NCBI GenBank assembly: GCA_019746355.1
Contig: JAIESC010000122.1
Span: 1-31,383, forward strand
Direction of reading: 5' to 3'
Source: Xanthobacteraceae bacterium
GTDB taxonomy: Bacteria; Pseudomonadota; Alphaproteobacteria; Rhizobiales; Xanthobacteraceae
Length of the DNA stretch: 31,383 nt
Under the pieces are notes generated by a model. It had not been told where the DNA came from and ran no database searches. It saw only the letters and a program-made list of their open reading frames with translations. The position numbers and the translations under genes were made by a program. Below are positions 20,323 to 30,043 of the stretch, piece by piece (the first letter of the stretch is position 1; every line of letters begins with the position of its first letter).

Positions 20323-20612
20323 GCTCTCCTGTTCGAAATCAGAAAACGATCTCATGCGTACTGGGATTTCTATTCCTACCGGCGCAGCTCCGCCAACTTC
20401 GCCCAGTCGGCGGATCGCTTGCGACTCGTCGACGACGACGGTGCAAAATCGTTGTAAGCAGGCGGCGTTCATGCTCTGAAATCCTCGGTCGCCCGACCTG
20501 GGCGTCAATTCCCCGTCGCGACATCCGCCATACCGCGATCCGATCCCGCCGCTGACGTCCGTGCCCGGTGACGCCGCGCCGTCGCATATGTTCGTGTCGA
20601 TCACGACGTATT
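20323..20612. other. Intergenic stretch without a confirmed gene
   Basis: There is no gene I can support here. One plus-strand frame (about 20314-20457, ending TAA) reads like a coding fragment (L-F-E-I-R-K-R-S-H-A-Y-W-D-F-Y) but has no start codon after the preceding stop. It may be the tail of a lost gene. The rest looks like ordinary GC-rich spacer leading to the toxin-antitoxin promoter. Confidence 0.4.
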
Positions 20613-20645
20613 TTGACAATCATCGTCCGTATGCTATTGTCATAC
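20613..20645 (+). promoter_or_regulatory. Toxin-antitoxin promoter with overlapping operator repeats
   Basis: TTGACA (20613-20618) and TATTGT (20635-20640) form a good sigma-70 promoter with a 16-base spacer. Two inverted repeats cover it: TGACAAT (20614-20620) with ATTGTCA (20636-20642), and GTATG (20629-20633) with CATAC (20641-20645). Ribbon-helix-helix antitoxins typically bind such sites to repress their own operon. Confidence 0.7.
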
Positions 20646-20671
20646 ACGTAATCAAGCGAACATCATTGGTT

Positions 20672-20935
20672 ATGACAACTTCTGTTCTCAGCGTGCGGGT
20701 CAGCGAGGAAGAGCGCGCCCTCCTGGAGGCGGCCTCGGATCAGGCGCGGACCAGCCTCAGCGACTTCGTCCGGCGCAAGGCGCTCGAGGCCGCAGAGATG
20801 GACTTGCTGGAGCGCCCGATCGTCACCATCCCGGCGAAAGATTGGAAGGCGTTCGAGGCTTGGGCGAACCGTCCGCCCCAGAAGATCGCCGCGCTCGAGG
20901 AACTTGTCCGCACTGATCCTGCATGGCGGGAATAA
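20672..20935 (+). CDS. tacA: TacA-like DUF1778 ribbon-helix-helix antitoxin
   Basis: The 87-residue protein starts at ATG 20672, 32 bases after the -10 box. Residues about 1-45 form the ribbon-helix-helix DNA-binding domain of DUF1778 (S-V-R-V-S-E-E-E-R-A-L-L, then S-L-S-D-F-V-R-R-K-A-L-E-A-A). The C-terminal part, with A-K-D-W-K-A-F-E-A-W, is the toxin-neutralising tail seen in TacA proteins. It should bind and inhibit the GNAT toxin encoded downstream and repress the operon. The two genes overlap by 13 bases. Confidence 0.92.
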   Translation: MTTSVLSVRVSEEERALLEAASDQARTSLSDFVRRKALEAAEMDLLERPIVTIPAKDWKAFEAWANRPPQKIAALEELVRTDPAWRE

Positions 20936-21432
20936 CACCGCCGCGGCCGCTCGCCGAAACCGACGACCGTGACGGATTCGATTGCGGCCGGGAAGCGATG
21001 AACCAGTGGTTCCGGCGGCACGCCTGGGCCAATCACGCCGCCGGCCTTTCGCGAACCAATGTCATCTGCGATACGGAGACGGGCCGGATCGTCGGCTATG
21101 TCACTTTGAGCGCCGGCCAGATCGAGCGCGCGGCATTGCCCAAGCCGCAGCAGCGAAACAAGCCCGATCCCATACCGGCGACCTTGCTCGGCCAGCTCGC
21201 GGCTCACAAAGGTCATCAAGGAAAGGGCTATGCCCGATCGCTGTTGTTTTTCGCGCTGCGCACCGCGTTGCGAGCCTCGCACGATATTGGCAGCTTCGGC
21301 GTTTTCACGCATCCGCTCGACGATGTCGCGCGCGGCTTCTACGCGCGCTGGGGTTTTCAGGATCTGCCGTTCGATCCGCGCCGGGCGATGATCGTCCGCA
21401 TGGTTGATCTGGAACGAGGCTTGGGATTGTGA
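20923..21432 (+). CDS. tacT: TacT-like GNAT acetyltransferase toxin
   Basis: The 169-residue protein has the GNAT fold: a beta strand I-V-G-Y-V-T-L-S, the acetyl-CoA pyrophosphate loop Q-G-K-G-Y-A-R-S-L-L, and the late F-Y-A-R-W-G-F motif with the conserved Tyr. In TacT toxins this arrangement acetylates the amino group of charged tRNAs and blocks translation. Pairing with a DUF1778 antitoxin and the 13-base overlap make the toxin assignment strong. The tRNA target is not deducible. Confidence 0.92.
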   Translation: MAGITPPRPLAETDDRDGFDCGREAMNQWFRRHAWANHAAGLSRTNVICDTETGRIVGYVTLSAGQIERAALPKPQQRNKPDPIPATLLGQLAAHKGHQGKGYARSLLFFALRTALRASHDIGSFGVFTHPLDDVARGFYARWGFQDLPFDPRRAMIVRMVDLERGLGL

Positions 21433-21483: not shown

Positions 21484-22680
21484 CTAGCCTGCCCGCCGCA
21501 GCCTGGTCGCCACCAGCCCGCCCCATCCGCGCAAGTGGCGGACCCATCGCTCGTCCAGAAGGGCCAACGGGTAAGCGGCCGCGAGCGTGAGCATGATGAA
21601 CAGCGCGAAAGCAACCGCCGCCGCGACGATGCTGCCGAAATGCCCCGCCAGGCCGGCGTGGGCCGGGGCAACGAGCCCATGCAAAACGGGTAGATGCACC
21701 AAGTAAATCGGAAACGACAGGCGTCCCAGCACGCCCGCCATGGGCCCGCGAAGCTTTGCGCGGATCGGCTCGCAAAACAGCACCAGCCCGAGGGCTGCGA
21801 CCGCGGCAATGCCGTGGATCAGCGGCTCGGTCTGCGGCGATGACCACGGAGCCGCGAAGGCATAGAAGCCCGAGGGCTTCGAATAGCCGTCGTAACCGAA
21901 CAGCACGATCACGAGGCCCGCGACCCCGAACGCGATCGGGCCACGCCATGGCTTCACGACGGCCGAAACTTGCGCGAGTGCTTCGCGTTCGAGATAGATT
22001 CGCGCAATCAAGACCCCGGCAACTGGCATGGCATAGTAAGGGCCGCCCTCGCCGAGCAGCATCGCCGTCAGCAGCGTGGCGATCACGCCTGTGGCCATGG
22101 CGCGCCAGAACGACCTTTGGAAGATCAGGACAAGGGCTGTCGCATAGGCCAGGAAGCTGCCGATCAGCTCGTAGTGCATCGTCCACAGCGCGGAATTGAA
22201 GTTCGCCGTCCCGCTGACGAAGGTCGTGAATGCCCCCTCCCGCACCGCGCGTCCGAGGACGGACGCGGCCTGCTCGAATGCACCGGCTCCGGGCTCGCTG
22301 CGGATATTGAACCAGGTGCTGTTCCCGTAGAGCCCGAACAGAAAGAAGATCGCCGACAGAACATTGACCGCCACCACCAGCGGGACGAGGCGCGGCCATC
22401 GTTTCACCATGCCGACGAGGATCTGCTTCCAGTCGCGCTGTTCGATGGCGCGAACCGTCAGCACAAAGCCGGACAGGACAAAGAACACCGTCACGGCCGC
22501 GGAGCCGTTGACCAGCGCGTAGAGCGGCGTGCGGACCAAGGCGATCGGATCGTCCGGGAAATTGCGCCCATGCAGGCGCGGCGCCACGAGCAGAAGGAAA
22601 TGATGCAGCAGCACGACTGCGGCGGCTATGCCGCGGAGTGCTTCCAGCTCCATGAGCTTGTCAGGAGCCGCCTTCGCCAT
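21484..22680 (-). CDS. Membrane acyltransferase, acyltransferase-3 (OafA/NodX) family
   Basis: The 398-residue protein has about ten membrane helices. Its N-terminus, L-E-A-L-R-G-I-A-A-A-V-V-L-L-H-H-F, includes the conserved His of the family. F-F-V-L-S-G-F-V-L and the R-W-P-R-L-V-P motif follow. Such enzymes transfer acetyl or other acyl groups to sugars, lipids or peptides. Its ATG lies inside the preceding small gene (20-base overlap), and that gene is coupled to lanM, so it belongs to the lanthipeptide synthetase operon. A tailoring role is possible, but acyltransferase-3 proteins also sit in many unrelated surface-polysaccharide loci. Confidence 0.88.
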   Translation of the reverse strand: MAKAAPDKLMELEALRGIAAAVVLLHHFLLLVAPRLHGRNFPDDPIALVRTPLYALVNGSAAVTVFFVLSGFVLTVRAIEQRDWKQILVGMVKRWPRLVPLVVAVNVLSAIFFLFGLYGNSTWFNIRSEPGAGAFEQAASVLGRAVREGAFTTFVSGTANFNSALWTMHYELIGSFLAYATALVLIFQRSFWRAMATGVIATLLTAMLLGEGGPYYAMPVAGVLIARIYLEREALAQVSAVVKPWRGPIAFGVAGLVIVLFGYDGYSKPSGFYAFAAPWSSPQTEPLIHGIAAVAALGLVLFCEPIRAKLRGPMAGVLGRLSFPIYLVHLPVLHGLVAPAHAGLAGHFGSIVAAAVAFALFIMLTLAAAYPLALLDERWVRHLRGWGGLVATRLRRAG

Positions 22681-22873
22681 GGGCCTTGTCCGAGGCAGCG
22701 TCCGCGAACCGGATTTCGAGCTCGGCCGGCACGGCCTTTCCGGTCGTCAAGCGCAGCGCCTCATGCGGATTGCTCAGGCAAAGCGCGCGGAACTCCAGAT
22801 CGATCTGCGAGCGCTTGAATATCTCGCGCACGGCGCGCCGCAGCTCCTCCTCCGTCAAGATCGCTTCGTCCAT
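22661..22873 (-). CDS. NHLP leader-like small protein without a recognisable core
   Basis: The 70-residue product resembles the nitrile-hydratase-like leader peptides (NHLP) of RiPP precursors: an acidic helical start (E-E-E-L-R-R-A-V), then D-L-E-F-R-A-L-C-L-S-N-P-H-E-A-L, then T-G-K-A-V-P-A-E-L-E-I-R-F. Normal NHLP precursors continue into a core after the leader. Here only A-A-S-D-K-A-H-G-E-G-G-S follows, with no Cys. I prefer ATG 22873, preceded by a G-rich Shine-Dalgarno-like run. An in-frame ATG at 22900 overlaps the lanM stop as TGATG and would add nine residues. It may be a core-less helper or a decayed precursor. Confidence 0.75.
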   Translation of the reverse strand: MDEAILTEEELRRAVREIFKRSQIDLEFRALCLSNPHEALRLTTGKAVPAELEIRFADAASDKAHGEGGS

Positions 22874-22899
22874 GCCCGCCCCCCACGGCCGCTCGAACA

Positions 22900-25800
22900 T
22901 CAGTTCAGCAACAGCACCGACGGGATTTTCGCCGGCTCCGCCAAGCGCAGCATCTGATAGCCGACGCCCGCCGCGCCCTGAAACAGACTGGGATTGAAGA
23001 ACCCGTTGTGGAACGCGATGCTGAACCCGCCGCGCTGATCGCTGCGCGCAATGGTCCGCCCGGCAAGCCGCAGCGCGCGTTCGGACCAGCCGCCGTCCGG
23101 AAACCGTTCGCCGGCTGCGCAAAGCGTGTCCATGAGCCCGGTGTTGCCGCAGCAGAGGTGATCGCGCGGCAGCAGATTGACACCGCCGGTCGCCGCCAAT
23201 GCGGCGCTGATGTCGCGCCGCACCTCCGCGGTGTCCATCATATCCAGCGCCCCGATCCGACCGAGCCCAATGCCCGGGGCGCCGTGACACCAGGCCATCG
23301 AGAACACCGGATTTTGCGACCGCCTGGTCGCGGCTGCTCTGAGATCGCGCCAGTTGTTGTGCTCCGGCACGAACGCATGGCCCTCGAAACGAACGCCCTC
23401 GAGCGCCGCATCATAAAACGCACGATCGGCGGTCGCCTTGTACAACTGCAGAAGCGCGTAAGCCATTCCGGCCGCGCCGTGAGAAAATCCGGTCAGGTGA
23501 CGCTTGTCGATGGTCGGCCATGTCCTGAGACCGAACGGATCGGGCGTGCGCCGTTGCAGGAGATGGCCGCCGCATGCGATCGCGCGCTCAAGCGCCCCTG
23601 GCTCCCCGGTCGCCGCGTGGCAGGCCAGCAGGCCGAGAATGGCGCCGGCCGCGCCGCTGATCGCGTCGAGGCTCTCGTCCCTTTCGATCTGATCCAGCCG
23701 GATGCGCAGCACCGCGATGCGCGCGTCGGCGATCAGCTCGTCGTCATCCAGAAGTTCGCCGGCCCGCGTCAGCGCATAGACGACCGAGGGCAGCCCGGCA
23801 TAGCCGCCGAGACCGAACTCCGCCAGTTCGGCATCGGCGGCAGTCTTGATCCAGCTTCGGACCGGCACGAGTGTGGCAGCGGCCAAGTCCCGGTACCGCG
23901 ACCCCGGCATGATCCGTTCCAGCGCCGCGAAGAACAGGCCGACGCCCGCCCGGCCGTTGTAGAGGTCGTTCTCCATCGGCTGCAATGTGTAGCGCTCGGC
24001 CGCGGGTGAATAGCTCAGCACCACCCAGCCGAGCTCGCCGTCGTGCTGGCGATAGGCCTTGGCTTCGATATCCTTCGCCAGCCGGATTGCGACGTCGAGC
24101 AGCGCGTCGCGGCCCGGAGCCTCGACCGGCTCTTCACTTTCATCAGTCGGCTCGATGGGCCAGGCGGTCGCAAGATTGGCGATCCGCACATCGAGCGCGC
24201 CCGTGATCAGGCTCAGCTGCCAGCGCAAATCCGCGCCGTTCAAATTGCCGATCCGGGTGCGCGCGACATTCCAGGCGCTATCGACAAAGCATCCGGCAAT
24301 CCGATGGCCGGGGCCGAATTGCAAGGCGTTCTCGTCGCCGCGCGCCGTGAACCTTGGAATATCCATGTTCCAAAGCGACGCCATCTCGGCAGCAATAAGC
24401 GGCCAGGACTTCGGCCTTTCCTTGGTCGCGAGTTGGTCGCGGGCCAGCAGATCGAGCTGAATTCCGAAATCGAGGCCGTCGCGGAGATACGCAGGGTGCA
24501 GCGCGCGGCGCAGGATCAGCGAATACAGCGCCGTCGCCCGATGGATGAACCGGGCGTCGCGGAAAAACATCGGCCGCAACGGGCCGCCCTCGTCCTGCAA
24601 CTGCTCCGCTTTTTCCATCAGGAAGCGATAGGCCTCCTCGAAGCCGTTCAAGATGTCGTTCGTGTAATCGTTCAGAACCGCGACCTTACCGTTCAGCTTC
24701 GGCAGATTGCGCGCCGGCTGCGGCGATTGCCGTTCATAGGCATAGTCCATGGCGTCGGTGTTGACCTTCGTCCAGACGATCGATTGCGCTTCGCCCTCTT
24801 CGTCCTCCGACCGCGCCAGCGCGGAAATGTCGAAATACTGACGATCCACCTTGACGGGATCGGGCAGCAGGTCGGTCGCCAGCACCGAGGCGCGCAGTCT
24901 CGCCGCGATCTCGCTCAGATCATCACCGGCGTCGGCCGACAGCGGCAGGCGATGGTGAAAGATCGTCTCCAGATCGACCGGCACGGGATGCTCTCCGCAG
25001 GCGATCAGATTCTCATAGTGAAAGTCGCTGCCGTTGAGCGCATGGACCAGGCAGAGGAAATGTCCGGCGCGCCGGTAATAGCGCCGGATTTCCTCCTCGC
25101 TCGCGCATGAGCGGTGCTCGGCATATTCGACCCAGCCGTAATTGCCGCGATCCAGCACTTTCAACGTGCGAAGCGGCAGCAGCACGCCGCAGCGATTCAG
25201 CCAGGCTACGAAGTCGAAATAGGCCTTTTCCAAGCCGAGGCCTCTCGGCTTGTAGACGAGCTTGAGCCCGCCGGAGAATTCGACGGCTACGACGGTGCGC
25301 CCGCCGTCATGCGGATCGGACAGGCTGGTCTCCACCGCAATGACGCCGCCGGCTGGCTCGCTGCGGTTGAACGTCGCTTCGATCTCGGCGAGATCGTTGA
25401 ACAGCCTGCTCTCGAACTCCCGCACGCTCGTGACCCACTGCATCACCGCCGCCGCCAGCAGCCGGGCCGCAACGCAATAGTCCTCGAACAACGAACCCCA
25501 GCCATCCTGGAAGGTTTGCGCGATGAAACGGCGATACTGCGTGTCCGACGCGCTCGCCGATCCCGCCGCTGGCCCTTCCTCGGCGAGTTGGCTGTACGCC
25601 AGGAAGGTCCGGAACTCCACGGCGAGCACGCGGGCGGCGATTTCGGTCAGCCGCTGCAGCAAGTCGCGGGCGAATGTGTCCAGCACATCGGCGGAAAGCC
25701 TGCTTCCGCCGCTCGCGGCGAGGCGCGCTTGCGCCACCGCAACAAACGGCGCGAACAGCTCCTCGAACGGCAGTGGATCCCCGGCCCTCTGACACGGGAA

Positions 25801-26139
25801 TGCCGCCGCCGCGTCCGCCGCAACGGCGGCATACCGCAATCGCTCCGTCGCCTCCAGAACCTGTTCGAGGACGCCGCACCATTCGGGCAGCGGGAAATCC
25901 GGAGCGACCTCGACCGGTCCAAGCAAGCGCCGCACGCTGTTTGCGTCCAGCCCGTCGCGTGCCAGTCGTGCGGCGAACAGCGCTTCGTCGCCGCCGGCTG
26001 CGGCGTTGCACCAGTCCTTCAGCCTGGCATTTGATTTGTGCGAATCAGCAGGAGTCTCGACGCGCAAGCCTGTCGCGCGCCGCTCCCAGAAAGACAACGA
26101 GTCGACCGCAATTCTTGCAAGCCGATCTGACGTGAGCAA
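22900..26139 (-). CDS. lanM: Class II lanthipeptide synthetase LanM, CCG zinc-site type
   Basis: The 1079-residue enzyme combines both LanM halves. The N-terminal dehydratase has V-Y-K-P-R (Lys297), the catalytic loop S-D-F-H-Y-E-N (Asp372, His374, Asn377) and V-D-L-E-T (Asp389); it phosphorylates and eliminates Ser/Thr. The C-terminal LanC-like cyclase has G-F-S-H-G-A-A-G, W-C-H-G-A-P-G (Cys951) and L-C-C-G-N-T-G (Cys996, Cys997). The usual Cys-His-Gly is thus Cys-Cys-Gly, giving three Cys zinc ligands as in ProcM-like enzymes. The start is TTG at 26139, with AAGG nine bases upstream and an in-frame stop just before. Confidence 0.95.
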   Translation of the reverse strand: MLTSDRLARIAVDSLSFWERRATGLRVETPADSHKSNARLKDWCNAAAGGDEALFAARLARDGLDANSVRRLLGPVEVAPDFPLPEWCGVLEQVLEATERLRYAAVAADAAAAFPCQRAGDPLPFEELFAPFVAVAQARLAASGGSRLSADVLDTFARDLLQRLTEIAARVLAVEFRTFLAYSQLAEEGPAAGSASASDTQYRRFIAQTFQDGWGSLFEDYCVAARLLAAAVMQWVTSVREFESRLFNDLAEIEATFNRSEPAGGVIAVETSLSDPHDGGRTVVAVEFSGGLKLVYKPRGLGLEKAYFDFVAWLNRCGVLLPLRTLKVLDRGNYGWVEYAEHRSCASEEEIRRYYRRAGHFLCLVHALNGSDFHYENLIACGEHPVPVDLETIFHHRLPLSADAGDDLSEIAARLRASVLATDLLPDPVKVDRQYFDISALARSEDEEGEAQSIVWTKVNTDAMDYAYERQSPQPARNLPKLNGKVAVLNDYTNDILNGFEEAYRFLMEKAEQLQDEGGPLRPMFFRDARFIHRATALYSLILRRALHPAYLRDGLDFGIQLDLLARDQLATKERPKSWPLIAAEMASLWNMDIPRFTARGDENALQFGPGHRIAGCFVDSAWNVARTRIGNLNGADLRWQLSLITGALDVRIANLATAWPIEPTDESEEPVEAPGRDALLDVAIRLAKDIEAKAYRQHDGELGWVVLSYSPAAERYTLQPMENDLYNGRAGVGLFFAALERIMPGSRYRDLAAATLVPVRSWIKTAADAELAEFGLGGYAGLPSVVYALTRAGELLDDDELIADARIAVLRIRLDQIERDESLDAISGAAGAILGLLACHAATGEPGALERAIACGGHLLQRRTPDPFGLRTWPTIDKRHLTGFSHGAAGMAYALLQLYKATADRAFYDAALEGVRFEGHAFVPEHNNWRDLRAAATRRSQNPVFSMAWCHGAPGIGLGRIGALDMMDTAEVRRDISAALAATGGVNLLPRDHLCCGNTGLMDTLCAAGERFPDGGWSERALRLAGRTIARSDQRGGFSIAFHNGFFNPSLFQGAAGVGYQMLRLAEPAKIPSVLLLN

Positions 26140-26282: not shown

Positions 26283-26483
26283 CTATTCCGGACTCAACGG
26301 ACCACGGGTGCGATAGAAGCAGTTGTTAAGCGTACGCGGCGTCGAGTTGTTGCACGAGCCTTCCATCCGCGCCGCCGGGCGCTTGCCGCGCTCGATGCCC
26401 GCGGGAAGATCATGCTGGGTGAGTGGCGGCGGCAGAACGAACGTCAGGGCACTATTCTTCCGGTCCTTGTCCGAAACACTCAT
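26283..26483 (-). CDS. Candidate lanthipeptide precursor peptide (LanA-like, inferred)
   Basis: The 66-residue reading frame starts at ATG 26483 with an excellent GGAG (26491-26494) seven bases upstream. It ends TAG 143 bases before lanM on the same strand. About three quarters of its codons end in G or C, as in real genes here. The C-terminal part has the composition expected of a class II core: G-S-C-N-N-S-T-P-R-T-L-N-N-C-F-Y-R-T, with two Cys and several Ser/Thr, including a T-L-N-N-C ring candidate. The leader is unlike NHLP or typical Gly-Gly leaders (L-P-P-P-L-T-Q-H-D-L-P), so recognition and cleavage are unclear. No homologue is recognised. Confidence 0.6.
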   Translation of the reverse strand: MSVSDKDRKNSALTFVLPPPLTQHDLPAGIERGKRPAARMEGSCNNSTPRTLNNCFYRTRGPLSPE

Positions 26484-26599: not shown

Positions 26600-28486
26600 A
26601 TGAGAACCATGATCGCTGGTGGCGAGCGCGACGGAAACGGAAAACCCGCGTCCTTGGGGGAGCGGCGGGCGATATGGTCTATCGTTCTGTCGCTGCTGCC
26701 TTATATCTGGCCGCGCGATCGCCGTGATCTGCAGCTGCGGGTGATCGTCGCGCTCCTGCTGTTGCTCGCCACCAAGCTTGCGACGCTCGCCGTTCCGATC
26801 CTGTTCAAGCTCGCCACCGACGCCTTGGCCGGCCCGGACAGCCGCGCGGCCGCAGGCCCGCAATGGCTGCTGTGGCTCATGGCCGCTCCGGCCGCCATTG
26901 TCGTCGCCTATTGTGTCACGCGTATTGCGGAGTCGACGCTCGCGCAGGTGCGCGACGGCCTGTTCGGCCGGGTTGCAATGCATGCGGTACGCCGGATCGC
27001 GGTGCGGACCTTCGCGCATCTGCACGAGCTTTCGCTCCGCTTCCACCTCGAGCGGAAGATCGGCGGCCTGAGCCGCATCCTGGAGCGCGGCCGCAACGGC
27101 ATCGAGATCATCGCGCGGCTGATCGCGCTGCAGCTCCTGCCGACCTTCATCGAGCTGCTGCTGATCGGCGGCTACATGATGTGGCAGTTCGACTGGCGCT
27201 ATGTCGCGGCGATCCTGCTCACTGTGGTCGCCTACGTCTTCTCGACCTACCGGCTGACCGAATACCGGCTCGGCATCCGCCGCGACGTGAACAGCACCGA
27301 CACGGAGTCGAACTCGAAGGCGATCGATTCGCTGATCAACTACGAAGCCGTGAAATACTTCAACAACGTGCCGCGCGAGGTCGAACGCTACGATGCGGTG
27401 ATGACGCGCTACGAGGATGCGAGCGTCAAGTCGATCAACTCCTTGTCGATGATGAACTCCGCGAACACGCTCCTGTTCACGGCGGGCCTCGGCGCTGCGA
27501 TGATCATGTGTGCGCTCGAAGTGCAGGCTGGCACCAAGACGATGGGCGATTTCGTGCTGGTCAATGCGATGATGCTGCAGCTCTATCAGCCGCTCTATTT
27601 CGTCGGTCTGGCCTATCGGGAGATCAAGCAGGCGGCGACCGACATCGAGGCCATGTGGTCGATCCTCAAGGAGACGCCCGAGATCGAGGATCGGCCCGGC
27701 GCGACGCCGCTCGCGGTGACGAGCGGCGCGGTGACGTTCGACAATGTGGTGTTTGCCTATGAGCCGGGGAGGCAAATCCTGAAAGGGATCAGCTTCGAGG
27801 TGCCCGCCGGCAGGTCGCTCGCCGTCGTCGGCCCGTCCGGGTCCGGCAAATCGACCATCGCGCGGCTTCTGTTTCGCCTCTACGACGTGACCTCGGGCCG
27901 GATCCTGATCGACGGACAGGATATCGGCGCGGTGACACAGGTGTCCCTGCGCGACGCGATCGGCATCGTGCCGCAGGACACGATGCTGTTCAACGACACG
28001 ATCCGCTACAACATCCGTTACGGCTGCTGGTCGGCGACCGACGCCGAGGTCGAGGATGCGACGCGGGGGGCGCAGCTCGACGGCCTCATCCGCGCGGCAC
28101 CTGCGGGCTACGACACCGAGGTCGGCGAGCGGGGTCTGAAGCTTTCCGGCGGCGAAAAACAGCGCGTCGCCATCGCCCGCACGATGTTGAAGAATCCGCA
28201 CATCCTCGTGCTCGACGAAGCGACGTCGGCGCTCGACACGGCGACCGAGAAGGAAATCCAGAGCGCGCTCGAACGGTTGTCCCGCAACCGCACGACCCTG
28301 ATCATCGCGCATCGGCTGTCGACCGTGGTCAGCGCCGACGAGATCATCGTTCTGGATCGGGGCGTGGTCGCCGAGCGCGGCACGCACAAGGCCCTGCTGG
28401 CGCGTGGCGGTCTCTATGCCGGCATGTGGCAGCGTCAGCAGGAGGCCGATGCGGCGCGGCACGCCGAGGCGGGGCAGCCGGGATGA
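26600..28486 (+). CDS. Atm1-type ABC exporter (fused membrane and ATPase domains)
   Basis: The 628-residue half-transporter has six membrane helices (about 40-320) and an ATPase domain. Walker A is G-P-S-G-S-G-K-S-T, the signature L-S-G-G-E-K-Q-R, and Walker B I-L-V-L-D-E-A-T-S-A-L-D. The Atm1/HMT1 subfamily is marked by Y-E-A-V-K-Y-F-N-N in the membrane domain and by D-V-N-S-T-D-T-E-S-N-S-K-A. Atm1 proteins export glutathione-linked sulfur or metal species. Position beside lanM could mean peptide export, but there is no C39 protease domain as in LanT. A second ATG at 26612 is possible. The TPR gene downstream overlaps by 4 bases. Confidence 0.92.
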   Translation: MRTMIAGGERDGNGKPASLGERRAIWSIVLSLLPYIWPRDRRDLQLRVIVALLLLLATKLATLAVPILFKLATDALAGPDSRAAAGPQWLLWLMAAPAAIVVAYCVTRIAESTLAQVRDGLFGRVAMHAVRRIAVRTFAHLHELSLRFHLERKIGGLSRILERGRNGIEIIARLIALQLLPTFIELLLIGGYMMWQFDWRYVAAILLTVVAYVFSTYRLTEYRLGIRRDVNSTDTESNSKAIDSLINYEAVKYFNNVPREVERYDAVMTRYEDASVKSINSLSMMNSANTLLFTAGLGAAMIMCALEVQAGTKTMGDFVLVNAMMLQLYQPLYFVGLAYREIKQAATDIEAMWSILKETPEIEDRPGATPLAVTSGAVTFDNVVFAYEPGRQILKGISFEVPAGRSLAVVGPSGSGKSTIARLLFRLYDVTSGRILIDGQDIGAVTQVSLRDAIGIVPQDTMLFNDTIRYNIRYGCWSATDAEVEDATRGAQLDGLIRAAPAGYDTEVGERGLKLSGGEKQRVAIARTMLKNPHILVLDEATSALDTATEKEIQSALERLSRNRTTLIIAHRLSTVVSADEIIVLDRGVVAERGTHKALLARGGLYAGMWQRQQEADAARHAEAGQPG

Positions 28487-29322
28487 CGGCGAACGGACCT
28501 TCCCAGGCGAGTGGCGGCGATGACGACACGGCGCTGGCGCGGGCCATGCTCTGTCTGGAGCAAGGCCGGCCGCAGGACGCGGAGCCGATTGCGGCCGAGA
28601 TGCTCAAGGCCGACCCGCATGACACGGGCGCGCTCTACGTCCTGGGCTGCGCACTGACGATGCAGGGCCGCGCCGGCGAAGCGATTGCGCCGCTCGAGGC
28701 CGCCGCAGGCGCCCGCGACGATCCGGCCCTGCATACGGCGCTGGCGATCGCGCTGCGTCAAGCTGGCCGTAACGACGATGCGGTCAGGAGCCTTAAGCTC
28801 ACGATCGCGCGGCATCGCGAATATGCCGCTGCGTTCCTTGAGCTCGGTCATCTGCTGGTTTCGATGGACCGGCACGACGAGGCGGTCGACGTGCTGGCGC
28901 GCGGCCTCGACATCGCGCCAACGATGCCGCAATTGCCGATCCAGCTCGGCTATGCCCAGCTCTCGCGTGGCGACTGCAACAAAGCCAGGGATGCTTTTGC
29001 CCGCGCGCTGGAGATTTCCCCTGGCTCGCATGATGCCCTGTTCGGCATGGCCAAGGCGCACCAGGAGATCGGCGAGAATTCGGACGCCGCCGCCTGGTTC
29101 CGCCGTTATCTGGCGGAGCGCCCGAACGATGCTAGTGCCCTGCTCGGCCTCGGGCATTGCCTGCTCGAGCTCGGCGAGCTCGACGCCGGGTACGACTGCT
29201 TCCGACGCGCGGCGCAAGGTGGCGCGCAACGCTACGGCAGCGCGCTCACGTCCCTGGCGTCTGCGGCGCGCGGCCGGTTTTGGCTGAAGCCGAGCCGGGC
29301 CAGACAATTCTTCGGGGACTGA
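28483..29322 (+). CDS. Tetratricopeptide repeat protein
   Basis: The start is ATG 28483, overlapping the ABC-exporter stop as ATGA; the frame open from 28426 lies within that gene. The 279 residues form about six to seven TPR units, for example A-L-Y-V-L-G-C-A-L-T-M-Q-G-R-A-G-E-A and A-F-L-E-L-G-H-L-L-V-S-M-D-R-H-D-E-A. There is no signal peptide or membrane segment, so it is a cytoplasmic scaffold. Coupling suggests it works with the exporter; the partner is unknown. Confidence 0.88.
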   Translation: MTANGPSQASGGDDDTALARAMLCLEQGRPQDAEPIAAEMLKADPHDTGALYVLGCALTMQGRAGEAIAPLEAAAGARDDPALHTALAIALRQAGRNDDAVRSLKLTIARHREYAAAFLELGHLLVSMDRHDEAVDVLARGLDIAPTMPQLPIQLGYAQLSRGDCNKARDAFARALEISPGSHDALFGMAKAHQEIGENSDAAAWFRRYLAERPNDASALLGLGHCLLELGELDAGYDCFRRAAQGGAQRYGSALTSLASAARGRFWLKPSRARQFFGD

Positions 29323-29323
29323 A

Positions 29324-30043
29324 TCAGCGCTTGGGCACGCGAAAGTGGCGGCGGTACACGTCGGTGTCCTGTCCGAGCGCCTGACGCGCCTTGATCAGGC
29401 GCTCCGCTTCATCGGCGGAGAATGTCTCGAACCGGCCGGTCCAGCTCTCACGCTTCACCGGCAGCAATTGTGCAACTGGCGTGCCCTTCGGCAGCACGCC
29501 GTTGAAGGCGGTGTCATGCCAGCGCGCCGGGAAATTGACCGGGGTGTCGTGGAACACGTCGCAATCGACCAGGCCGGTCAGCGTGGTGAACGGCAGGTCG
29601 GCGCGATTGATCGGGTGAGTGATCAGCACCGAGTAGCCCGGCGGCGCCTCGATGGTCCAGAAGTTGTTGAACTTGATGATGAAGCGATCGTCGTCGAAGA
29701 ACGGAGAGCCTTCGACCTGGCTCGCATCGTGAAATCCGATCGGCGAATGCGAATACTCGCTGACGAACCCCTTCGGCGCGTCGAAGCTCCAGGTGAATTC
29801 GCCGTCCCGCACCTCGAGGTCGACCGGCAACGGCATCAGGAAGCCGTATGTCATCGCGTCGATGAAGGGCGGACATTTCTTCACCGTCTGCCCTTCCGCG
29901 CCCATGGTCGGATTGAACGCCTTCTGCGGCAGCGCCTTGAACCAGTCCGGCAGGCCGAGCATTGCCGGAATGGGCCGCGGCAGAACAGCTTCGAGCTCGC
30001 GCGGGCAGCGAAACCTCAGCGTCGTTGGCTGGACGTTGTCCAT
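29324..30043 (-). CDS. Conserved protein of unknown function (DUF6065-like)
   Basis: The 239-residue cytoplasmic protein is rich in aromatic residues and prolines, with blocks such as K-K-C-P-P-F-I-D-A-M-T-Y-G-F, I-I-K-F-N-N-F-W-T-I-E-A-P-P-G-Y-S and F-P-A-R-W-H-D-T-A-F-N-G. I believe it belongs to DUF6065, from memory. These blocks recur in alphaproteobacterial proteins with no known activity. It is convergent with the TPR gene, with only one base between their stop codons. No catalytic motif is evident. Confidence 0.7.
   Translation of the reverse strand: MDNVQPTTLRFRCPRELEAVLPRPIPAMLGLPDWFKALPQKAFNPTMGAEGQTVKKCPPFIDAMTYGFLMPLPVDLEVRDGEFTWSFDAPKGFVSEYSHSPIGFHDASQVEGSPFFDDDRFIIKFNNFWTIEAPPGYSVLITHPINRADLPFTTLTGLVDCDVFHDTPVNFPARWHDTAFNGVLPKGTPVAQLLPVKRESWTGRFETFSADEAERLIKARQALGQDTDVYRRHFRVPKR

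What the first reader, a model, noticed from the sequence alone, without database searches (positions are those of the whole stretch)
22900..26139. ProcM-like (CCG) class II lanthipeptide synthetase in an alphaproteobacterium
LanM enzymes are best known from Firmicutes, Actinobacteria and cyanobacteria. This one carries Cys951, Cys996 and Cys997 (W-C-H-G, then C-C-G) where typical enzymes have Cys, Cys, His. In ProcM the same three-Cys zinc site goes with relaxed substrate choice. All dehydratase residues are intact, so the enzyme should be active. The gene neighbourhood (small NHLP-like protein, acyltransferase, no LanT) does not match a standard lanthipeptide locus I know.
Basis: partly seen in the sequence, partly recalled or inferred. 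Interest (0 to 1): 0.85.

Follow-up and report, generated by a model that had tools for sequence, protein, structure and literature searches.

The report
Lanthipeptide cassette with split leader
This alphaproteobacterium carries an intact enzyme for making ring-shaped peptides, next to a highly conserved, unannotated peptide gene that is probably its substrate, and the guiding tag that such enzymes use appears to be divided between two separate genes, an arrangement I did not find described.

Summary
Window 22900-26139 (minus strand) encodes a full-length class II lanthipeptide synthetase (TIGR03897, 872 bits) with Cys951, Cys996, Cys997 and all mapped dehydratase residues, inside the CCG part of a 74-row LanM tree. 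The reading 'ProcM-like, relaxed substrate choice' is not supported. The neighbouring NHLP-like protein is not the substrate. The likely substrate is an unannotated 66-aa ORF at 26283-26483 (-), between LanM and a divergent exporter. Its family (46 proteins, its own row included) has a nearly fixed core SCxxSTPx[TS]LNNCFYRxRG, dN/dS is 0.085-0.18 over four loci, and three relative genomes with the cassette hold one significant copy each. Its leader contains TFVLPPLLTQHxL, which resembles the second beta strand, proline stretch and L(X)4L motif of nitrile-hydratase-like (NHLP) leaders. The 70-aa protein after LanM is an NHLP globular domain that stops just before that strand (model on PDB 9cjx: 44% identity, rmsd 1.3, Foldseek E 0.02). 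So the NHLP leader looks cut in two; I propose that small protein and peptide form the leader in trans. A more distant locus (L035) shows a candidate for the same split. The exporter is an Atm1-type paralogue without a C39 domain. All is inference from sequence and models.

The parts
22900..26139 (-). LanM, class II lanthipeptide synthetase, 1079 aa (TTG start), CCG zinc site Cys951/Cys996/Cys997
   Evidence: TIGR03897 872 bits; Pfam; residues; tree
26283..26483 (-). Unannotated precursor peptide, 66 aa, ATG preceded by GGAG; leader has TFVLPPPLTQHDLP, core near SCNNSTPRTLNNCFYRTRGPLSPE
   Evidence: 46 family members including itself, E<=1e-3; dN/dS 0.085-0.18 over four loci; present between exporter and LanM in 4 of 4 cassette loci; start context
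22661..22900 (-). Stand-alone NHLP (nitrile-hydratase-like leader) globular domain, 70 aa from Met at 22873 or 79 aa from the ATG that overlaps the LanM stop; no core, no second beta strand
   Evidence: TIGR03793 model positions 6-48 of 77, below its cut-off; 14 family members including itself; PDB 9cjx E=4.9e-15; Foldseek 9cjx TM 0.60, 8tb1 TM 0.53
21484..22680 (-). Membrane acyltransferase (Acyl_transf_3); its start overlaps the end of the NHLP gene
   Evidence: PF01757 6.8e-24; in 4 of 4 cassette loci
26600..28486 (+). Atm1/ABCB7-type ABC exporter, no C39 peptidase domain, divergent from the precursor
   Evidence: PF00664+PF00005; best PDB matches rice ABCB25 and Atm1-type exporters; paralogues at 62-64% elsewhere in the relatives' genomes; alignment
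28426..29322 (+). TPR protein, start overlaps the exporter's end; flanking module, role unknown
   Evidence: a relative lies near the next gene in 9 of 9 stretches without LanM
29324..30043 (-). DUF6065-like protein (weak Pfam match); flanking module, role unknown
   Evidence: PF19541 E=0.0013, below cut-off; in 33 of 198 family genomes, two of them through the cassette

Best explanation
This is a dedicated class II lanthipeptide cassette. LanM dehydrates Ser/Thr and closes up to two thioether rings on one conserved peptide encoded at 26283-26483 (-). The usual NHLP leader is divided over two polypeptides: the three-helix plus first-strand globular part is a separate small protein translated right after LanM, while the second strand (TFVLP), the proline-rich stretch and the L(X)4L motif stay on the peptide. 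The peptide's strand would dock on the small protein, rebuild the leader fold and so present the core to LanM. The Atm1-type exporter would then move the product out. Leader removal and acylation are unresolved. Shown by sequence or model: intact LanM, conserved precursor, NHLP fold of the small protein, strand motif on the peptide, conserved gene order. Inferred: docking in trans, ring pattern, export, acylation.
For: LanM intact. Precursor: 46 family members and near-fixed core, purifying selection, and LanM and precursor hits with equal longest-contig length in 9 cases (40 LanM, 26 of 46 precursor and 7 of 14 NHLP entries compared). Small protein: profile hit to NHLP leader 9cjx at 4.9e-15, model superposes on 9cjx and 8tb1. 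In 9cjx the chain goes on KVRFVENEGA-HMTFVLPDPAGS, and the precursor has TFVLPP. PSSM of 9 NHLP strand segments: window precursor 14.0 bits, 13 of 100,000 shuffles as high; true segments 7.7-23.3 left-one-out; none of the 14 stand-alone proteins above 3.4. Without 9cjx and with one Tistrella segment in place of four: window 12.2 bits, 19 of 20,000 shuffles; L001 52, L002 129, L035 193 of 20,000. Anatomy of NHLP leaders: a1-a3, b1, b2, Pro-rich region, LxxxxL helix (PMC10858898 section 7). A YcaO enzyme needs both the a1 helix and L(X)4L (PMC12455567). Second, divergent candidate: L035 has a stand-alone NHLP after LanM and an upstream 60-aa ORF with MVYVLPAALQRPRDLP and a Cys-Cys end.
Against: No complex was modelled or measured. 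The strand motif is only about nine residues and I chose it after seeing it. Four of the nine PSSM segments come from one Tistrella locus, and the signal drops without 9cjx (window 23 of 20,000, L002 317 of 20,000). For orthologue L034 it is weaker still (9.2 bits, 424 of 50,000 shuffles; 21 of 3490 control ORFs as high). One of the 46 (P0179, cut at the motif) scores -1.5. In one published system (SrpI) the globular NHLP part is dispensable, so LanM could need only the peptide's own L(X)4L. TIGR03793 matches stay below its curated cut-off, and the Foldseek E-values are weak (best 0.02). The A4 profile has no meaningful PDB hit, 9cjx included. The L035 peptide has no relatives that I could fetch and does not match the precursor profile.
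Confidence: 0.6

Rival explanations
1. The stand-alone NHLP protein is a decayed former precursor that lost its core, and LanM now recognises the new peptide by its own short leader alone.
For: The peptide carries an L(X)4L-like motif (L21/L26). One NHLP-acting enzyme needs only that motif (PMC10858898 abstract and passages).
Against: The small protein is under purifying selection (dN/dS 0.16-0.32), none of the 14 family members has anything like a core after the conserved domain, and a relative follows LanM even in L035, whose LanM is 44.5% identical.
Confidence: 0.2
2. The small NHLP protein serves another step (exporter or acyltransferase docking), not LanM recognition.
For: It overlaps the acyltransferase gene (window 22661-22680). 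Different enzymes use different NHLP surfaces (PMC12455567).
Against: The missing strand is found on the peptide itself. L035 keeps LanM plus the small protein, and tblastn found no similar acyltransferase in that 19.4-kb stretch.
Confidence: 0.12
3. ProcM-like promiscuous synthetase with many dispersed substrates.
For: CCG zinc site and CCG group in the tree.
Against: One significant precursor per genome in 3 of 3 cassette genomes; almost invariant core in 46 family members. My profile would miss precursors with an unrelated leader.
Confidence: 0.05

Closest known systems
NHLP (proteusin-type) leader peptides, e.g. DprE2 (PDB 9cjx) and MprE7 (8tb1)
   Same: Three-helix fold and first strand in the stand-alone protein; second-strand motif, Pro-rich stretch and L(X)4L on the peptide
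   Different: In the intact members I saw, these parts lie in one chain ahead of the core; here they are on two genes, and a double-glycine end is not conserved
ProcM/SyncM-type CCG LanM (prochlorosins)
   Same: CCG zinc site; sits on the CCG side of the LanM tree
   Different: One conserved dedicated substrate rather than many; leader is not Nif11 (the prochlorosin leader type, PMC10783134 abstract); no C39 exporter. ProcM itself was not compared
Roseocin-type NHLP lanthipeptides
   Same: NHLP-related leader modified by a LanM
   Different: PMC10027976 reports NHLP leaders with CHG LanMs and Nif11 leaders with CCG LanMs (passages); here CCG goes with NHLP parts
Alphaproteobacterial LanMs with short (F/E)VSDEALE leaders (L036, L040, L041, L044-L047)
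   Same: CCG LanM in the same family of bacteria
   Different: 31-34% identical LanM, different leader type, different tree branch
Atm1/ABCB7 exporters
   Same: Closest solved relatives of the cassette exporter
   Different: A second copy beside an Atm1-like gene elsewhere in the genome; Asn in 4 of 4 cassette copies where 4 of 4 paralogues have the Gln of GQ (that this Gln binds glutathione is recalled)

Membership tests
Class II lanthipeptide synthetase (LanM) | DUF4135 dehydratase fused to LanC-like cyclase | tested here: met
Class II lanthipeptide synthetase (LanM) | Catalytic dehydratase and zinc residues present | tested here: met
   residues named from PMC4550811 passages
Class II lanthipeptide synthetase (LanM) | Makes lanthionine on a precursor | not testable with these tools
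   needs mass spectrometry
ProcM-like CCG LanM | Three-Cys zinc site, placement with CCG enzymes | tested here: met
   ProcM not in the tree
ProcM-like CCG LanM | Many diverse precursors for one enzyme | tested here: not met
   one significant copy in 3 of 3 cassette genomes, core nearly fixed; not tested in the window's own genome, and unrelated leaders would be missed
Lanthipeptide precursor (LanA) | Ser/Thr and Cys in a C-terminal core beside lanM, under selection | tested here: met
Lanthipeptide precursor (LanA) | Double-glycine leader end | tested here: not met
   none in the window; a GG in 9 of 46 family members about ten residues before the Ser-Cys. Not obligatory: about one third of LanAs have it (PMC7268733 passage)
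NHLP leader peptide (one chain) | Helical domain with first strand | tested here: met
   stand-alone protein, by sequence match to 9cjx and fold; the model itself shows helices only
NHLP leader peptide (one chain) | Second strand, Pro-rich stretch, L(X)4L and core in the same chain | tested here: not met
   these motifs are on the separate precursor

The most novel reading that the evidence does not exclude
A natural two-gene NHLP leader: the folded recognition domain is a separate, reusable protein that completes itself by taking up a beta strand from each substrate peptide and hands the peptide to LanM, a built-in way of guiding a lanthipeptide synthetase in trans. It would have arisen before the split between the window's clade and the L035 clade.
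Probability: 0.5. Interest if true: 0.85.

Novelty: new variant of a known kind. Interest (0 to 1): 0.72.

Why it matters
If right, leader recognition can be uncoupled from the substrate gene in nature. That makes it directly testable which part of an NHLP leader a LanM needs, and gives a ready tool for modifying peptides that carry only a short tag. It also adds a conserved, unannotated lanthipeptide family in Alphaproteobacteria with an unusual Atm1-type exporter, and shows that a CCG zinc site does not by itself mean many substrates.

Tried and rejected
The NHLP-like protein as precursor: rejected, since its tail is variable, has no Cys and is too short for a core. Promiscuity as in ProcM: not supported. 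The DUF6065-like and TPR genes as core cassette parts: set aside, because the DUF gene occurs in 33 of 198 family genomes, two of them (G001, G002) through the cassette, and in 9 of 9 further stretches that I fetched a TPR relative lies within 4 kb of it while no LanM or precursor match was found. Rfam (gathering threshold) and tRNA scans of the window found nothing. A viral-contig scan with a LanM alignment found no relative among 32 pattern matches. Plasmid tblastn found LanMs in 193 records, all under 60% identity. The precursor profile against PDB gave two hits at E 0.7-0.9 only. The TIGR03793 genome search (57 of 388 genomes match, 0 over the cut-off) gave hits that look largely like nitrile hydratase alpha subunits, judging by frame lengths and the three sequences printed, and was not useful for intact leaders. 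The 45-50% sister LanMs (such as P0047-P0058) could not be seen in context. The second structure job and the remaining fold searches were not used.

Papers: PMC10858898 abstract, passages and section 7; PMC12455567 parts 1 and 2 of 3; passages of PMC10027976, PMC7268733, PMC11251773 and PMC4550811; other papers in search listings only. No natural split NHLP leader showed in searches (20 of 22 papers listed; 15 of 87 listed; none of the 15 held a split, discrete or stand-alone leader phrase), so an unlisted paper could exist. No paper held lanthipeptide, Atm1 and exporter together. The library lacks most subscription papers; the 2012 LanM evolution paper was not held.
Full report
1. Observation. 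The ORF 22900-26139 runs on the minus strand and encodes a 1079-aa LanM: TIGR03897 over the whole model at 872 bits, Pfam DUF4135 and LANC_like. Cys951, Cys996 and Cys997 are as stated. The ten phosphorylation and elimination positions that I mapped by motif are present in the window and kept in 136 to 141 of the 141 aligned LanMs; the CylM residues come from passages of PMC4550811. LicM2 (PDB 6st5) aligns over residues 124-1078. The window lies close to a Xanthobacteraceae MAG: the exporter, LanM, acyltransferase, GNAT, DGQHR-like and N-acetylglucosamine-6-phosphate-deacetylase-like (recalled name) proteins match L001 at 88-96%, and precursor, NHLP-like, TPR, DUF6065-like and TacA-like proteins at 84-95%.

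2. CCG. In 141 LanMs the third zinc position is Cys in 136 and His in 5; this set was gathered by similarity to the window, so it is biased to CCG. In a 74-row tree the 5 CHG rows lie on one side of a branch with SH-aLRT 100 and the window is with the 69 CCG rows. The tree is a quick one, with flagged long branches, and does not contain ProcM. In 391 genomes of the family of the Bradyrhizobium MAG (G002; G001 is among them), 39 match the LanM model and 19 pass the cut-off, with 20 loci; 19 of these 20 read CCG and one CHG. So LanM is uncommon in this family, but CCG is usual among its LanMs.

3. Cassette. Four loci (window, L001, L002, L034) share the order DUF6065-like, TPR, exporter, precursor, LanM, NHLP-like, acyltransferase. 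The three genomes other than the window's are 3 of 391 searched in the family. With the LanM as query at E<=1e-100, a genus search matched 2 of 195 genomes (one only a 33% relative) and another 1 of 11; an order search matched 3 of 397 and a phylum search 3 of 398, both counting 32-37% relatives. The one scan of named genome contigs gave two loci, L001 and L002.

4. Precursor. Between exporter and LanM is a 66-aa ORF, 26283-26483 (-), with GGAG before its start in the window and L001 and AGGA in L002 and L034. A three-sequence profile found 46 proteins among 52 candidates, the window's own included; the listing names them 'hypothetical protein' or not at all. Column counts, of 46: Ser43 45, Cys44 45, Ser47 44, Pro49 45, Thr/Ser51 44, Asn53 44, Cys55 44, Arg58 44; the exceptions fall in rows that look truncated, frame-altered or divergent (P0171, P0173, P0178, P0180). 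Pairwise dN/dS is 0.085-0.18 for the precursor against 0.19-0.32 for LanM. LanM and precursor hits share the same longest contig length in 9 cases (40 LanM and 26 of 46 precursor entries compared); this is inference from lengths. Three of 3 genomes with the cassette have one significant copy; the further rows are at E 0.05 or worse. A GG near residues 32-33 occurs in 9 of 46, not in the window, so a double-glycine cleavage site is not conserved.

5. The NHLP-like protein. Its family has 14 members including itself, with a conserved domain ending near [KE]-I-x-F and a short variable tail. It matches TIGR03793 below the curated cut-off. Its profile hits PDB 9cjx, an NHLP leader, at 4.9e-15. The AlphaFold model (mean pLDDT 71, three helices, no strand) has as best PDB match 9cjx (TM 0.60, rmsd 1.3, 44% identity, Foldseek E 0.02) and next 8tb1 (TM 0.53, E 0.6). 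dN/dS is 0.16-0.32.

6. The split. Per PMC10858898 section 7, an NHLP leader has helices a1-a3, strands b1 and b2, a proline-rich region, then a short helix with LxxxxL. In 9cjx, KVRFVENEGA is followed by HMTFVLPDPAGS; in 8tb1, LRVLENTATVVNLVLPPPPAEGELSDEDL. The stand-alone protein stops after b1. The precursor has TFVLPPLLTQHxLP: Leu17, Pro18, Pro19, Gln23, His24, Pro27 in 46 of 46, Val16 45, Leu/Met21 46, Leu26 44. A PSSM of nine NHLP segments gives the window precursor 14.0 bits, 13 of 100,000 shuffles as high; left-one-out scores of the true segments are 7.7-23.3; the 14 stand-alone proteins reach at most 3.4 and the L035 one 5.1; 0 of 5912 stop-to-stop ORFs of 40-120 aa reach 14.0, a set that includes cassette loci. 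Among the 46 the lowest is P0179, cut at the motif, at -1.5, then 8.2. L034 scores 9.2 with 424 of 50,000 shuffles as high, and 21 of 3490 control ORFs reach that, so the signal is weaker there. Four of the nine segments are from one Tistrella locus and one is 9cjx, the closest in sequence; with a single Tistrella segment and without 9cjx the counts of 20,000 shuffles as high are window 19, L001 52, L002 129, L035 193; dropping 9cjx alone gives 23, 81, 317 and 154. I chose the motif after seeing it; the test is against an independent family but is not blind.

7. Second case. In L035 (G045) LanM is 44.5% identical. The gene after it matches the stand-alone profile at 4.3e-15 and also has no core. 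Upstream lies a 60-aa ORF with MVYVLPAALQRPRDLP and ending NCCY, PSSM 11.9, 88 of 50,000 shuffles and 1 of 3490 control ORFs as high. It does not match the precursor profile itself, and no relatives of it were available (of 3 genus genomes only G045 has the LanM).

8. Exporter and tailoring. The exporter has no C39 domain in Pfam. Its best PDB matches are ABCB25 and Atm1-type proteins. Four genomes searched each have a 62-64% homologue, which in the three with the cassette is additional to the 78-94% cassette copy. Cassette copies have SAN or TAN where paralogues have TGQ or AGQ. The acyltransferase is of the Acyl_transf_3 family; acylation of this peptide is a guess. Acylated class II lanthipeptides exist (nostolysamides, abstract in search listing).

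9. Mechanism and doubt. Most likely the small protein and peptide together act as the leader. A YcaO enzyme needs both the a1 helix and L(X)4L, while a brominase needs only the latter, so both outcomes are open for LanM. I put the split reading at 0.6 and the working trans leader at 0.5; the extra controls did not change these odds.

10. Novelty. PMC10027976 ties NHLP to CHG LanMs and Nif11 to CCG (passages), so CCG with NHLP parts is already unusual. Searches showed no natural split NHLP leader in their capped listings. New variant of a known kind.

Noticed in passing
window 20561-21432 (+): TacA-like antitoxin and GNAT acetyltransferase pair, a likely toxin-antitoxin module, also in L001.
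   Followed up: no
window 28426-30043 and L103-L111: DUF6065-like gene with a TPR gene nearby recurs without LanM in the stretch; two tandem pairs in L110.
   Followed up: partly
L035 7668-7850 (+): Possible second precursor type, MLDVATSARK...MVYVLPAALQRPRDLP...KVYNCCY.
   Followed up: partly
L036: The Bradyrhizobium MAG G002 holds a second CCG LanM (34% identical to the window's) with an EVSDEALEAAA-type precursor candidate.
   Followed up: no
L049 and L050: Longer precursor candidates ending GGGSPYCIFTKGCYCIFTK, identical ends in two genomes, with an internal repeat YCIFTK in the core.
   Followed up: no
L051 (G201): CHG LanM beside an intact NHLP precursor with a Cys-rich core, in the same bacterial family.
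   Followed up: partly
L144 6746-7021 (+): Tistrella gene annotated hypothetical looks like a fourth NHLP precursor beside three annotated ones.
   Followed up: no
P0022 and P0164: A contig labelled Betaproteobacteria MAG (38,654 bases) appears, by equal contig length, to carry a 69% LanM and the precursor, so the cassette may be mobile or the label wrong.
   Followed up: no
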